From Carboxylicivirga linearis (lineage in GTDB: Bacteria; Bacteroidota; Bacteroidia; Bacteroidales; Marinilabiliaceae): a stretch of DNA of 64,000 bases. A program made the translations under genes and the position numbers. Numbering within the stretch: the first letter of the stretch is position 1; the number at the start of each line of letters is the position of its first letter. This document shows positions 51,897 through 54,411 of this stretch, piece after piece. The DNA is taken from assembly GCF_018271995.1 (NCBI RefSeq), contig NZ_JAGUCO010000003.1, positions 372,001-436,000 on the forward strand. The letters are read 5' to 3'. The notes under the pieces were generated by a model. It was not told the origin of the DNA. It saw only the letters and a list, made by a program, of their open reading frames with translations, and made no database searches.

Positions 51897-52319
51897 TTAC
51901 AAGTTGGCCAGGCGATTTAGAATTTTATCTAAACCTAAAAGAAATACTATTCCAATTGCCACGAAATAAACCATTGATGGTATTTGAGCGAAAATAGTAA
52001 ATACCTGCTTAAAGCTTTTGTTTAAAGAGCTAATGTCAAGTGTTTTAGTGTTAATTCCAAATTCGCCTAAGTATTGTTGAATAACAGTAGCGTCAGCTAA
52101 AAAGGTAATGGCCAAAACAGCCATGGCAGCAATAATAACCCACCATCTGTTTTGCTTATTTATAATTGGCTGATAGGTTTGAGGCTTTTCAACCCAATCA
52201 TGTAAAACCCGATTCATCGCGTTTTGCTTGATGGAGGCTGGAGCTTCCTCAGGAGTGAAATCCTTAAACAGATCCCGTATCAGCTTATCTTCATCGTTAT
52301 TTATCTTCCTATTCATCAT
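51897..52319 (-). CDS. Anti-sigma-like membrane protein of the ECF operon
   Basis: 140 residues. Cytoplasmic N-terminal half (NDEDKLIRDLFKDFTPEEAPASI), a membrane helix at about 61-80 (RWWVIIAAMAVLAITFLADA), and a second near the end (MVYFVAIGIVFLLG). It lacks the zinc anti-sigma HxxxCxxC motif. Its position directly after the sigma gene (gap 7 bases) and the topology suggest it holds the ECF factor at the membrane; this is inference. The pair shares the promoter at 52914-52940. Confidence 0.7.
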   Translation of the reverse strand: MMNRKINNDEDKLIRDLFKDFTPEEAPASIKQNAMNRVLHDWVEKPQTYQPIINKQNRWWVIIAAMAVLAITFLADATVIQQYLGEFGINTKTLDISSLNKSFKQVFTIFAQIPSMVYFVAIGIVFLLGLDKILNRLANL

Positions 52320-52326
52320 CTCAAAT

Positions 52327-52902
52327 TTATAAAATTGAGTTTAATTCTCCTCTCAACAAAGTATTTAATTCGTTCTGCATTTGTTTTCTACCTCTGTGCA
52401 ACTTCACTTTAATGTTAGAAACAGATAAGCCTGTTGCTTTGCTAATTTCTTCAACACTTTGTTCTTTATAATAGTATAGAATTAAAATAAAAGCATCATC
52501 TTCTTTTAACTTATTTAGTGCTTGTTTTAATACCTTCTTACGCTCCTGTAACTCCAGCCTATGCATATTGTTTTCTGCATAGTCAGCTTCGAATTGAACA
52601 GCTTCTTTGCTATCCAAATCTTTGGTGGCGGGTTTTCTGCCACGCAATTTTGAAATAGCAGTATTATAAACAATCCGATAGAGCCAGGTTGAAAAAGAAG
52701 CTTCCCCTTTATATTTATTTAATGATTTATATGCCTTAACAAAAGCATCCTGAGTAACTTCTTCAGCTTCTTCCTGATTTTTAACAATTCCCTTTGCCAG
52801 TGTAAATGCCATATGTTGGTATTTATCAATAATCTGTGCAAAGGCAGCTACATCACCTTTCTTGATGTTTTTTATAAGCTCTATGTCGTTATTGTTGCTC
52901 AT
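52327..52902 (-). CDS. ECF-type RNA polymerase sigma factor
   Basis: 191 residues: region 2 ELIKNIKKGDVAAFAQIIDK to FVKAYKSLNKYKGEASFSTWLYRIVYNT with the typical aromatic-rich -10 recognition stretch, then region 4 KLKEDDAFILILYYYKEQSVEEISKATGLSVSNIKVKLHRGRKQM, a helix-turn-helix for the -35 element. It would bind core polymerase and its target promoters. The start lies 12 bases downstream of a TGTAACC-N16-CGTC site, so the transcript would be nearly leaderless. This supports autoregulation. Confidence 0.94.
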   Translation of the reverse strand: MSNNNDIELIKNIKKGDVAAFAQIIDKYQHMAFTLAKGIVKNQEEAEEVTQDAFVKAYKSLNKYKGEASFSTWLYRIVYNTAISKLRGRKPATKDLDSKEAVQFEADYAENNMHRLELQERKKVLKQALNKLKEDDAFILILYYYKEQSVEEISKATGLSVSNIKVKLHRGRKQMQNELNTLLRGELNSIL

Positions 52903-52913
52903 TCAAAAAATAG

Positions 52914-52940
52914 GACGCCTTGAATTAAAAAATGGTTACA
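52914..52940 (-). promoter_or_regulatory. ECF-type promoter of the sigma/anti-sigma operon
   Basis: Minus strand: TGTAACC (52940-52934), exactly 16 bases, then CGTC (52917-52914), of the -35/-10 form recognised by ECF factors. The CGTC is 12 bases before the sigma ATG. Its twin lies at 53038-53064. Confidence 0.72.
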
Positions 52941-53037
52941 CCTATAATGCAAGTTATTTGGATTTATTAGTAAGGTCAAGGTATTTAGTGGAATAGGAGA
53001 TATTGGAATGGTAAAAGATAAAAAAACGAATATTTTT

Positions 53038-53064
53038 TGTAACCGGTTATTTTTAGCTGGCGTC
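53038..53064 (+). promoter_or_regulatory. ECF-type promoter of the small membrane protein gene
   Basis: Plus strand: TGTAACC (53038-53044), exactly 16 bases, then CGTC (53061-53064). Same -35, spacing and -10 as the promoter facing the other way at 52914-52940. The 53128 start is 64 bases downstream. Confidence 0.72.
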
Positions 53065-53127
53065 ATACGAATGAGCGCTCCGGGAGAGTAAACAAATAAA
53101 AAAATGTAAAACTTAAAATATTTAATC

Positions 53128-53469
53128 ATGGAAGGACCATTAGCAATTATCTTTATTTTCGGCGGTATTCCTGCAATAATTATTGCACTGGCATATTTCA
53201 GAACGCGCAGAATAGAACGCACTGCTTTAATAGCTGCAGGAAAAGATGCTTCAATTTTTGAACAGTTGAATAGTAAACCCAAACATTATTTAAGTCTGAA
53301 ATATGGCATTTTTATGGTTGGATTAGCAATTGGAGTATTGATGGGATCTGTACTACAGAATTATACAATGATGAATGATGCAGCTTCGTATTTTTCTATG
53401 GTATTGTTATTTGGAGGATTAGCTTTAGTGCTTTTTTATATGATTCAAAAAAAACTTAATGACGAATAA
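53128..53469 (+). CDS. Small membrane protein (DUF6249-like), probable ECF target
   Basis: 113 residues: helix 1 (LAIIFIFGGIPAIIIALAYF, residues 5-24), a basic cytoplasmic loop with FRTRRIERTALIAAGKDAS, helix 2 (LKYGIFMVGLAIGVLMGSVL, 57-76) and helix 3 (YFSMVLLFGGLALVLFYMI, 88-106). It resembles DUF6249 membrane proteins, usually encoded beside ECF sigma factors in this phylum. The gene diverges from the sigma factor and has the matching promoter. Function unknown. Confidence 0.8.
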   Translation: MEGPLAIIFIFGGIPAIIIALAYFRTRRIERTALIAAGKDASIFEQLNSKPKHYLSLKYGIFMVGLAIGVLMGSVLQNYTMMNDAASYFSMVLLFGGLALVLFYMIQKKLNDE

Positions 53470-53494
53470 ATTAAGGTATTATAAAAGGGTGTAT

Positions 53495-53529
53495 GAAAAA
53501 AGACTGTTTGTATAAGACAGTCTTTTTTT
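53495..53529 (+). terminator. Intrinsic terminator
   Basis: AAAAAAGACTGT (53496-53507) pairs with ACAGTCTTTTTT (53517-53528). It ends the small membrane protein transcript. Confidence 0.9.
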
Positions 53530-53595
53530 ATTTAATCAAAACTATTTTCTTCTTTTCTCGTATTCTGATCAGGAAAACAACAAACTATTAGTAAA

Positions 53596-54411
53596 ATGAA
53601 AAAGAGTGTATTGGGGATTATTACTGTATTGTCATTATGGGGGCTGAATAGTTGCGAACTTGAGGAGAAGATTGAACAATTTAATTCGGTGGATGACGGA
53701 ATAGAAGCTTTACAAGAATATGCAATTGTTAGTAAGCAATTTCAAAATGCATCTAATAGTTGTGATGAAGCAGTTTTAAGTGCAGAAGTGCAAGAGACAG
53801 CAGAATTAAAAGCCAATTTACAAGGGCCTGTCATTACTGTCGAAACCGATGGTGTTAATGAATGGCCAAAATATATAACCGTTGATTTTGGAGGTGGTAT
53901 CACTGGCTTGGATGGAGTATTACGATCAGGTAAATTACATATTGAATCAACTAATTGGTATCGCACTGAGGGAAGCGTACATACTACTACTTTTGAAGAT
54001 TATTACCAAAATGGCTATAAGGTAGAAGGTACACATATTGCAACTAATAATGGAAATGCAGAGGGAGAAGGCCTACAGTTTAATGTTGTAATATCAGATG
54101 GCAAGGTAACAAAAGACGGAGCTGTAATTGAATATCAACAAAACTCAACACGTACCTGGAAAGAGGGAGCAGATACTCCTTTTAATATTTGGGATGATGA
54201 ATATGCGCTGGACGGCACACAAAAAGGAGTTAGCTCAAAAGGTGTTGAATATGCACTTTCTATTACCGAACCTCTTTATTTTAAAGTTTTAACAAGAGAA
54301 ATTACAGAGGGGAAGATGGCAGTAGTTATTGAAGGATTGCCAGGTATTGAATTAAATTACACCACATCTACAATATGGATTGGAGAACAAAGTTTTCCAA
54401 TGCAAAAATAA
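53596..54411 (+). CDS. Hypothetical lipoprotein
   Basis: 271 residues with a lipoprotein signal (MKKSVLGIITVLSLWGLNSC). The mature part has beta-strand-rich segments with Gly/Asp turns (ITVDFGGGITGLDGVLRSGKLHI, DGAVIEYQQNSTRTWKEGAD), as in surface proteins with duplicated beta domains. No recognised family; a conserved Bacteroidota secreted lipoprotein of this general form is likely. It shares a strong bidirectional terminator with the GH43-like gene. Confidence 0.65.
   Translation: MKKSVLGIITVLSLWGLNSCELEEKIEQFNSVDDGIEALQEYAIVSKQFQNASNSCDEAVLSAEVQETAELKANLQGPVITVETDGVNEWPKYITVDFGGGITGLDGVLRSGKLHIESTNWYRTEGSVHTTTFEDYYQNGYKVEGTHIATNNGNAEGEGLQFNVVISDGKVTKDGAVIEYQQNSTRTWKEGADTPFNIWDDEYALDGTQKGVSSKGVEYALSITEPLYFKVLTREITEGKMAVVIEGLPGIELNYTTSTIWIGEQSFPMQK

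What the first reader, a model, noticed from the sequence alone, without database searches (positions are those of the whole stretch)
52327..53469. Two identical, divergent ECF promoters flank an ECF sigma factor
Seen directly: TGTAACC-N16-CGTC occurs on the minus strand at 52940-52914, 12 bases before the sigma ATG, and again on the plus strand at 53038-53064 before the small membrane protein. Same seven -35 bases, same 16-base spacer, same CGTC. Known: ECF factors commonly autoregulate and use -35/-10 elements of this form. Inference: this sigma factor drives its own operon and a two-gene stimulon that includes the DUF6249-like membrane protein, and the sigma transcript would be almost leaderless. 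This gives a ready search pattern for its whole regulon.
Basis: partly seen in the sequence, partly recalled or inferred. Interest (0 to 1): 0.75.

Follow-up and report, generated by a model that had tools for sequence, protein, structure and literature searches.

The report
Self-activating envelope-stress sigma factor divergon
A bacterial stress switch (an ECF sigma factor with a probable membrane-bound inhibitor) appears to turn on its own gene and a neighbouring small membrane protein from matching back-to-back promoters, a layout found in several orders of the Bacteroidota, and probably also a few envelope proteins encoded elsewhere in the genome.

Summary
Conservation shows it is real. 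Of 80 DUF6249 loci retrieved with that protein, 72 have an ECF sigma gene within about 4 kb (71 divergently oriented) and 54 carry TGTAAC-N15-18-CGTC upstream (shuffle mean 0.04); all 54 read TGTAACC.

A refined motif, TGTAACY-N15-GCGTC-N-TA, gives 83 against 2 over 60 genomes (21 against 2 outside the genus it was refined on) and five in this genome: sigma, DUF6249, two DUF4097 genes, one DUF2807 gene. Orthologues picked by protein carry a site in 22/22 and 18/21 sigma-bearing genomes.

Corrections: a two-gene stimulon is unlikely, since a strong hairpin (z -5.9) follows DUF6249. The nearly leaderless sigma mRNA is supported: 39 of 56 relatives keep a 10-12-nt gap from CGTC to start codon.

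Best reading: an autoregulated ECF/anti-sigma envelope-stress switch with a small regulon. Unproven: transcription, the anti-sigma, the signal, and which sigma reads the TGTAACT sites.

The parts
52327..52902 (-). ECF sigma factor, 191 aa
   Evidence: Pfam Sigma70_r2 60.8 bits and Sigma70_r4_2 51.7 bits, both above cut-off; NCBIfam sigma70-ECF superfamily 113.1 bits against a cut-off of 42.9; PDB profile matches to ECF sigma factors, including SigW (5wuq) and sigma-E (1or7)
51897..52319 (-). putative membrane anti-sigma factor, 140 aa: two N-terminal helices, then two hydrophobic helices; 7 bases separate its start codon from the sigma stop codon
   Evidence: matched by tblastn in 24 loci, against 31 loci with sigma, (three loci of the set were fetched twice); helices 7-19, 28-44, 55-86, 115-139 in a low-confidence model (pLDDT 66); no Pfam family; one NCBIfam 'anti-sigma factor' match far below cut-off (14.8 bits against 100, E 0.021); function inferred from position
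52914..52940 (-). promoter of sigma/anti-sigma: -35 TGTAACC 52940-52934, -10 CGTC 52917-52914
   Evidence: the same site in 14 of 14 genus sequences compared and upstream of 56 of 72 sigma genes at named DUF6249 loci
52903..52907 (-). predicted 5-nt leader (transcript start near 52907, assuming 7 nt from the last base of CGTC; that distance is recalled, not measured)
   Evidence: 11-base gap to ATG; gap of 10-12 in 39 of 56 relatives
53038..53064 (+). promoter of DUF6249: -35 TGTAACC 53038-53044, -10 CGTC 53061-53064
   Evidence: strict site in 12 of 14 genus sequences and in 54 of 80 DUF6249 loci, all 54 TGTAACC, shuffle mean 0.04
53065..53127 (+). DUF6249 leader, with a G+C-rich block at about 53069-53089 that is kept in most of the genus sequences compared
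   Evidence: genus leaders; neither of the two sub-threshold Rfam matches in 52300-53700 overlaps it
53128..53469 (+). DUF6249 membrane protein, 113 aa, three long helices
   Evidence: Pfam DUF6249 62.8 bits against a cut-off of 33; model pLDDT 81.6; no PDB fold match at E <= 0.001
53493..53531 (+). hairpin with U-rich 3' arm, probable terminator after DUF6249
   Evidence: -20.4 kcal/mol for 53485-53545, z -5.9, 0 of 200 shuffles as good; not listed by the consensus terminator scan
53596..54411 (+). neighbouring ORF with a lipoprotein-like N-terminus (by eye), probably not part of the unit
   Evidence: no Pfam family; lies after the hairpin; found beside DUF6249 in G001, G004 and G006 only, among the loci searched

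Best explanation
This is an autoregulated ECF sigma/anti-sigma divergon that heads a small envelope-stress regulon. The membrane protein encoded just after sigma (putative anti-sigma, two hydrophobic helices, N-terminus taken as cytoplasmic) holds the sigma factor inactive (inferred). An envelope signal, unknown, frees it (inferred). Free sigma directs RNA polymerase to TGTAACY-N15-GCGTC-N-TA promoters (inferred from sequence and conservation). It raises its own operon through a nearly leaderless transcript, which includes the anti-sigma gene and so can shut the response off again (inferred). It also switches on the divergent, probably monocistronic DUF6249 gene and three unlinked genes for exported-looking proteins: two DUF4097 and one DUF2807 (Toastrack family). 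Shown here: sites, conservation, gene order. Not shown: transcription, sigma-promoter binding, signal.
For: Exact sites and their rarity. Linkage: of 80 DUF6249 loci, 72 have an ECF sigma gene within about 4 kb, 71 of them divergently oriented, and 54 carry the site, all TGTAACC, against a shuffle mean of 0.04 and reversed control 0. Sigma side: 56 of 72. DUF6249 genes not adjacent to sigma can still carry the site: two copies 5-6 kb from sigma in G022, one about 1.5 kb away in G032, one on a different contig in G050. Refined motif: 83 sites against 2 controls over 60 genomes, 21 against 2 in the 46 outside the genus; in the own genome five against none, all 11-63 bases before starts. Toastrack orthologues picked by protein carry a site in sigma-bearing genomes in 22/22 (DUF4097) and 18/21 (DUF2807) cases, against 5/8 and 4/9 without; with GCGTC required, 2/8 and 2/9. 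Genomes with sigma but without the paralogue ECF2 keep it in 8/8 and 6/7. In 12 named genomes 24 of 30 sites read precede sigma (7), DUF6249 (7), DUF4097 (5) or DUF2807 (5) genes, including Marinifilum, Ancylomarina, Anaerophaga, Marinilabilia and Thermophagus.
Against: No expression data. The refined motif was shaped on the genus genomes, so the 62 genus sites are not independent. Before refinement neither search showed an excess: 39 against 42 and, with one mismatch, 124 against 149 control hits. The 12 named genomes gave 32 hits against 14 controls, a weaker excess, and 6 of 30 sites read are not at these genes. The DUF6249 query was built mainly from sigma-linked copies and only the best 80 of 150 loci were kept, so 72/80 may overstate the linkage; the 80 include genus members and near relatives. 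26 of 80 DUF6249 loci lack the strict site. The 7th base differs: C at DUF6249 (54/54) and at most sigma promoters (53/56), T at Toastrack promoters (21/22, 17/18), so another sigma could read the T sites. G023 has Toastrack sites with ECF2 but no close sigma orthologue. 'Sigma-bearing' was set by hand; a plain cut at E 1e-45 moves G042 and gives 18/20 against 4/10 for DUF2807. No correction for phylogeny. The anti-sigma matches no family above cut-off, and its model is poor.
Confidence: 0.77

Rival explanations
1. Two sigma factors share the work: this sigma reads only the TGTAACC promoters (itself and DUF6249), while the TGTAACT promoters of DUF4097/DUF2807 genes belong to another ECF sigma of the same genome.
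For: 7th base C at DUF6249 and most sigma promoters, T at most Toastrack promoters; G023 has T sites with only the paralogue ECF2; 5 of 8 DUF4097 and 4 of 9 DUF2807 genes in genomes without a close sigma orthologue still have a TGTAAC..CGTC site; other ECF sub-regulons with TGTAACA or TGTAACC..AATCGTC exist in the genus.
Against: Sigma's own promoter reads T in L223, L228, L231, L185 and L188, so the base looks exchangeable; DUF4097 of G032 and DUF2807 of G012 read C; G012 lacks ECF2 but keeps the sites; no sigma gene of the own genome had a strict TGTAACT site within 400 bases upstream of the ORF start taken.
Confidence: 0.2
2. The paired motif is a chance coincidence and the genes are read from housekeeping promoters.
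For: The strict pattern has no genome-wide excess over its control (39 against 42 in 14 genomes).
Against: 26 of those 39 hits sit at this one locus; 54 of 80 DUF6249 loci against a shuffle mean of 0.04.
Confidence: 0.01
3. The sites are operators for a DNA-binding regulator or are read by another ECF sigma, and the adjacent sigma does not read them.
For: ECF sigma factors can overlap in promoter use (recalled; also suggested in passages of PMC9723704); the paralogue ECF2 sits beside its own DUF6249 copy with TGTAACC-N16-TCTCTTA upstream.
Against: Sites keep promoter geometry (15-18 bases between TGTAAC and CGTC, mostly fixed distance to the sigma start) and go with the sigma gene and DUF6249 across families.
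Confidence: 0.05

Closest known systems
SigW/SigX/SigM-type and RpoE-type ECF sigma factors with membrane anti-sigma factors
   Same: ECF domain order, membrane-protein gene directly downstream, autoregulation, -35 AAC / -10 CGT form (promoter forms recalled)
   Different: NCBIfam SigW and RpoE models match only below their cut-offs; the partner matches no anti-sigma family above cut-off; different predicted regulon
EcfO-Reo of Bacteroides/Phocaeicola (passages in PMC13114119 and PMC9308784; primary paper not held)
   Same: Bacteroidota ECF/anti-sigma envelope-stress pair with a regulon that includes envelope proteins
   Different: Reo spans to the outer membrane with a C-terminal barrel; this partner is 140 aa with two hydrophobic helices; NigD genes against DUF6249/DUF4097/DUF2807
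Psp/Lia envelope-stress systems with Toastrack proteins (passages in PMC11237479)
   Same: Toastrack (DUF4097/DUF2807) proteins together with small membrane proteins under stress-type regulation; a passage mentions an operonically linked sigma factor
   Different: Targets here are mostly unlinked genes under an ECF sigma; N-termini look exported (by eye), whereas the paper argues for intracellular Toastracks; PspA and PspC were not looked for
F. psychrophilum SM6 ECF promoters (passages in PMC9723704)
   Same: CGT box at -10; the gene list includes a sigma/anti-sigma operon
   Different: SM6 targets shown are type IX secretion, Band-7 and other genes; no DUF names occur in that text

Membership tests
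ECF (group 4) sigma factor | regions 2 and 4 present, short protein without region 3 | tested here: met
   Pfam r2 at 25-90 and r4_2 at 125-175 of 191 aa, above cut-off; NCBIfam sigma70-ECF superfamily above cut-off
SigW equivalog | NCBIfam curated cut-off | tested here: not met
   132.3 bits against 209, and 116.8 against 243.1
RpoE equivalog | NCBIfam curated cut-off | tested here: not met
   114.5 bits against 236.15
Autoregulated ECF divergon | same promoter form before sigma and before the target, conserved in relatives | tested here: met
Autoregulated ECF divergon | sigma-dependent transcription from both promoters | not testable with these tools
   needs RNA or purified protein
Membrane anti-sigma factor | gene cotranscribed with sigma, cytoplasmic N-terminus plus membrane helices | tested here: inconclusive
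   position and helices fit; cotranscription and topology not measured
Membrane anti-sigma factor | match to a known anti-sigma domain family | tested here: not met
   Pfam: 0 families for the window protein, and none of the 11 weak families among 22 relatives is named an anti-sigma family; NCBIfam NF052375 'anti-sigma factor' at 14.8 bits against a cut-off of 100; PDB profile search, best E 0.56
Toastrack (DUF4097/DUF2807) as regulon members | protein families and upstream site | tested here: met
   Pfam DUF4097 69.7 and 41.5 bits, DUF2807 162.7 bits; sites
Psp/Lia system | PspA or PspC/LiaI-LiaF-TM components | not tested
   not searched for in this genome; DUF6249 has no fold match at E <= 0.001
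EcfO-Reo | large anti-sigma with outer-membrane barrel domain | tested here: not met
   the partner has 140 residues, helices and no strands in a low-confidence model

The most novel reading that the evidence does not exclude
A widespread, ECF-driven Bacteroidota counterpart of the Psp/Lia membrane-stress response: one sigma/anti-sigma pair controls DUF6249, a three-helix membrane protein that would act as sensor or membrane-side partner, together with exported Toastrack proteins. The sigma mRNA is kept nearly leaderless on purpose, so that its translation obeys different rules from most mRNAs of the phylum. (It is not universal: 31 of 60 relatives searched have a DUF6249 match, and Marinifilum and Ancylomarina have long sigma leaders.)
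Probability: 0.3. Interest if true: 0.72.

Novelty: new member of a known kind. Interest (0 to 1): 0.5.

Why it matters
DUF6249 had one hit in the searched full-text library, a paper whose title is about a plant gene family (listing only). This analysis gives the family a genetic context (72 of 80 loci beside an ECF sigma gene), a promoter and likely co-regulated partners, and gives DUF4097/DUF2807 proteins of Marinilabiliales a candidate regulator. It yields a search pattern with little background (83 against 2; 21 against 2 outside the genus). The recurring 10-12-nt gap between -10 and start codon predicts nearly leaderless sigma mRNAs in a phylum where such leaders are rare: about 3.7% of B. 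thetaiotaomicron 5' UTRs are under 10 nt (passages, PMC7366714), and 5.5% of the F. psychrophilum mRNAs examined are leaderless (passages, PMC9723704). Both can be tested by start-site mapping.

Tried and rejected
The same with one mismatch and a CGTCNTA end: also no overall excess, 124 against 149; what carried information was the recurrence of the same genes downstream. The two-gene stimulon: judged unlikely. All sigma genes of the genome sharing this promoter form: rejected; of 29 Sigma70_r2 loci (which include non-ECF sigma genes) two have a strict forward TGTAAC..CGTC site upstream, this one and L083. A rigid paired-site pattern over 198 class genomes found only the own genome; its narrow gap and full GCGTC make this uninformative. 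DUF6249 fold search: no match at E <= 0.001. The anti-sigma model was too poor for a fold search. Rfam: two sub-threshold matches at the hairpin, taken as chance. The consensus terminator scan did not list the 53493-53531 hairpin. Rows dropped: of the 124 hits, 26 are at this locus, 79 were fetched, and 19 were not (18 with a mismatch in the core of the motif, and G008:C83 near a contig edge); of the 79, one had no site by my regex and three no ORF. Literature: ten searches. Only asked for DUF6249 (one paper, on plants, seen as a listing), which asked for TGTAAC with three ECF terms, found none; this speaks for this library only. Papers seen as passages: PMC11237479, PMC12596196, PMC13114119, PMC9308784, PMC9723704, PMC7366714, PMC10434189; as outline with abstract: PMC13088901. 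PMC12596196, PMC10434189 and PMC13088901 added nothing decisive.

Full report
Observation. In the window the shuffle expectation is 0.02, and none of 100 shuffles reached two matches. In the 6.05 Mb genome these are the only two copies; the reversed-pattern control has one. The nearest named relatives are Carboxylicivirga and unnamed Marinilabiliaceae (lineage).

Anatomy. Minus strand: promoter, 11 bases, ATG of a 191-aa ECF sigma (Pfam r2 and r4_2 above cut-off), a 7-base gap, then a 140-aa protein with two N-terminal helices and two hydrophobic helices (model pLDDT 66). That protein has no Pfam family and only a far-below-cut-off NCBIfam 'anti-sigma factor' match; it is taken as the anti-sigma from position. 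Plus strand: promoter, 63 bases, a 113-aa DUF6249 protein (62.8 bits, cut-off 33) with three long helices (pLDDT 81.6). After DUF6249 comes a hairpin with a U-rich 3' arm, -20.4 kcal/mol, z -5.9, which the consensus terminator scan did not list. The next gene (53596-54411) was found beside DUF6249 only in G001, G004 and G006, the closest relatives; two of these are the 2 matches among the 80 named loci. The plus-strand unit is therefore probably a single gene.

Conservation. In 14 genus intergenic regions the sigma promoter is present in 14 and the strict DUF6249 promoter in 12, while most of the sequence between them is not conserved. For a wider test I searched named genomes with a DUF6249 alignment (150 confirmed, best 80 kept; Marinilabiliaceae, Marinifilum, Ancylomarina, Pedobacter, Mucilaginibacter, Dyadobacter, Emticicia, Aquimarina and many metagenome assemblies; the alignment came mainly from sigma-linked copies). 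Of 80, 72 have an ECF sigma gene in the locus, 71 of them divergently oriented (in 9 loci the starts are 0.8-1.5 kb apart), and 54 have TGTAAC-N15-18-CGTC within 350 bases upstream of DUF6249, every one TGTAACC. Shuffles give a mean of 0.04, maximum 1; the reversed control gives 0. Of the 26 without a strict site, two have almost no upstream sequence; of the other 24, I read TGTAACC with a changed -10 (such as TGTCATA in Pedobacter) in 20 and TGTATCC in four. Of 72 sigma genes, 56 have a site upstream; in 39 of these the gap between CGTC and the start codon is 10-12 bases, while Marinifilum and Ancylomarina loci have 88-240 and one Anaerophaga locus 86. So the almost leaderless sigma transcript is a recurring trait, though the start point itself is inferred.

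The promoter follows DUF6249 when the genes part. In G022 two DUF6249 copies lie 5-6 kb from sigma and both carry the site; in G032 it is about 1.5 kb away; in G050 it is on another contig from the sigma gene. G034 is an exception: unlinked DUF6249 without a strict site, though TGTAACC remains.

Regulon. With one mismatch and a CGTCNTA end there is none either, 124 against 149. Reading what lies downstream of 79 of these hits (75 gave an ORF) showed recurrent genes: DUF4097 (28), an outer-membrane beta-barrel gene (13), DUF2807 (12), an ABC ATPase (8), a 161-aa ECF gene (8), and a 552-572-aa protein (4); two were single. The motif refined on these, TGTAACY-N15-GCGTC-N-TA, gave 83 sites against 2 controls over 60 genomes (25 of 60 with a site); the 62 genus sites are not independent of the refinement, the 21 against 2 in the other 46 genomes are. 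In the own genome it has five sites against none: sigma, DUF6249, DUF4097 of 343 aa, DUF4097 of 208 aa, DUF2807 of 230 aa (families). In 12 named genomes a looser motif gave 32 hits against 14 controls; of 30 read, 7 precede sigma, 7 DUF6249, 5 DUF4097, 5 DUF2807, one each the 161-aa ECF and the ABC gene, three other genes, and one no ORF.

Test by protein rather than motif (best match in each of 30 genomes). DUF4097 orthologues: 22 of 22 in genomes with a sigma orthologue carry TGTAAC-N15-18-CGTC within 300 bases, 5 of 8 without. DUF2807: 18 of 21 and 4 of 9. Requiring GCGTC, the second figures are 2 of 8 and 2 of 9 (Fisher p 0.014 and 0.032, or 5e-5 and 0.002 with GCGTC; not corrected for phylogeny). 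Sigma presence was set by hand; a plain cut at E 1e-45 would move G042 and give 18 of 20 and 4 of 10 for DUF2807, and leave DUF4097 unchanged. Two of the misses have little upstream sequence (G029 for DUF4097, G007 for DUF2807). Some genomes without a close sigma orthologue still have a site at these genes, often with other flanking bases, so Toastrack genes seem to be ECF-controlled more widely than by this sigma.

Which sigma? A paralogous module in the same genome, DUF6249-2, ECF2 and a 110-aa protein in the anti-sigma position, is an operon-like row. Genomes with sigma but without ECF2 keep the sites (8 of 8 and 6 of 7), so ECF2 is not required. G023 has ECF2 but no close sigma orthologue and keeps the sites, so ECF2 may read them too. 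The 7th base is C at DUF6249 (54 of 54) and at most sigma promoters (53 of 56) but T at Toastrack promoters of sigma-bearing genomes (21 of 22 and 17 of 18). Since sigma's own promoter reads T in several genomes (L223, L228, L231, L185, L188), I think one sigma reads both, with the base as a strength setting; two sigmas remain possible (0.2).

Mechanism, with marks. Shown: sites, conservation, gene order, hairpin prediction. Inferred: the 140-aa protein sequesters sigma; an envelope signal frees it; sigma activates itself, its anti-sigma and four target promoters. Autoregulation with a cotranscribed inhibitor would give a fast, self-limiting pulse. DUF6249 would act in the inner membrane, and DUF4097/DUF2807 proteins, which start with signal-like sequences (by eye), in the periplasm or at the surface. 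A published analysis groups DUF4097, DUF2154 and DUF2807 as Toastrack, tied to membrane stress (passages in PMC11237479); it argues for an intracellular place, which does not fit the exported-looking proteins here. In several genera the DUF4097 gene follows the end of a Mur-ligase-like gene (two fragments tested match murC/mpl models below cut-off).

Comparison. It works like the known autoregulated ECF/anti-sigma switches and is an ECF sigma by domain test; it fails the SigW and RpoE equivalog cut-offs and differs from EcfO-Reo in its short partner and its predicted targets. Novelty lies in the regulon and in giving DUF6249 a context, not in the kind of switch. ECF group numbers were not assigned here. 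The recount made for this version added controls and caveats (the motif refinement, the query bias, G042) and corrected small figures; it did not require a change of odds, because the conservation evidence outside the genus stands on its own.

Noticed in passing
window 53069-53089: The DUF6249 leader of most Carboxylicivirga relatives compared carries a G+C-rich block (about CGARTGAGCGCTCCGGGAGAG) just after the predicted transcript start, better kept than the promoter spacer and not seen in the leaders of the other genera listed except in part in L193; no Rfam match overlaps it. Function unexplained.
   Followed up: partly
L095:1435-2707 (G000:C93): Second DUF6249-ECF-anti-sigma-like row in the same genome, co-directional rather than divergent, with TGTAACC-N16-TCTCTTA upstream.
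   Followed up: partly
L083 and L094 (G000:C148): A separate sub-regulon with TGTAACA: a short (161-aa class) ECF sigma gene and an outer-membrane beta-barrel gene about 40 kb apart, both recurring in the genus.
   Followed up: partly
L110, L130, L180: An ABC ATPase gene followed by a permease-like gene has a TGTAACC (once TGTAACT) site; in 7 of 8 genus loci the -10 reads AATCGTC; in L110 and L130 the gene is divergent from a further ECF sigma gene.
   Followed up: partly
L174, L176, L179, L181: The regulated DUF4097 gene sits just after the 3' end of a Mur-ligase-like gene in several genera, hinting at a cell-wall link (L174 and L179 tested, the other two by eye).
   Followed up: partly
G000:C159:118987-119979 and 124203-124751: Another DUF4097 gene lies about 4 kb from another ECF sigma gene, so the DUF4097-ECF link may be more general.
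   Followed up: no
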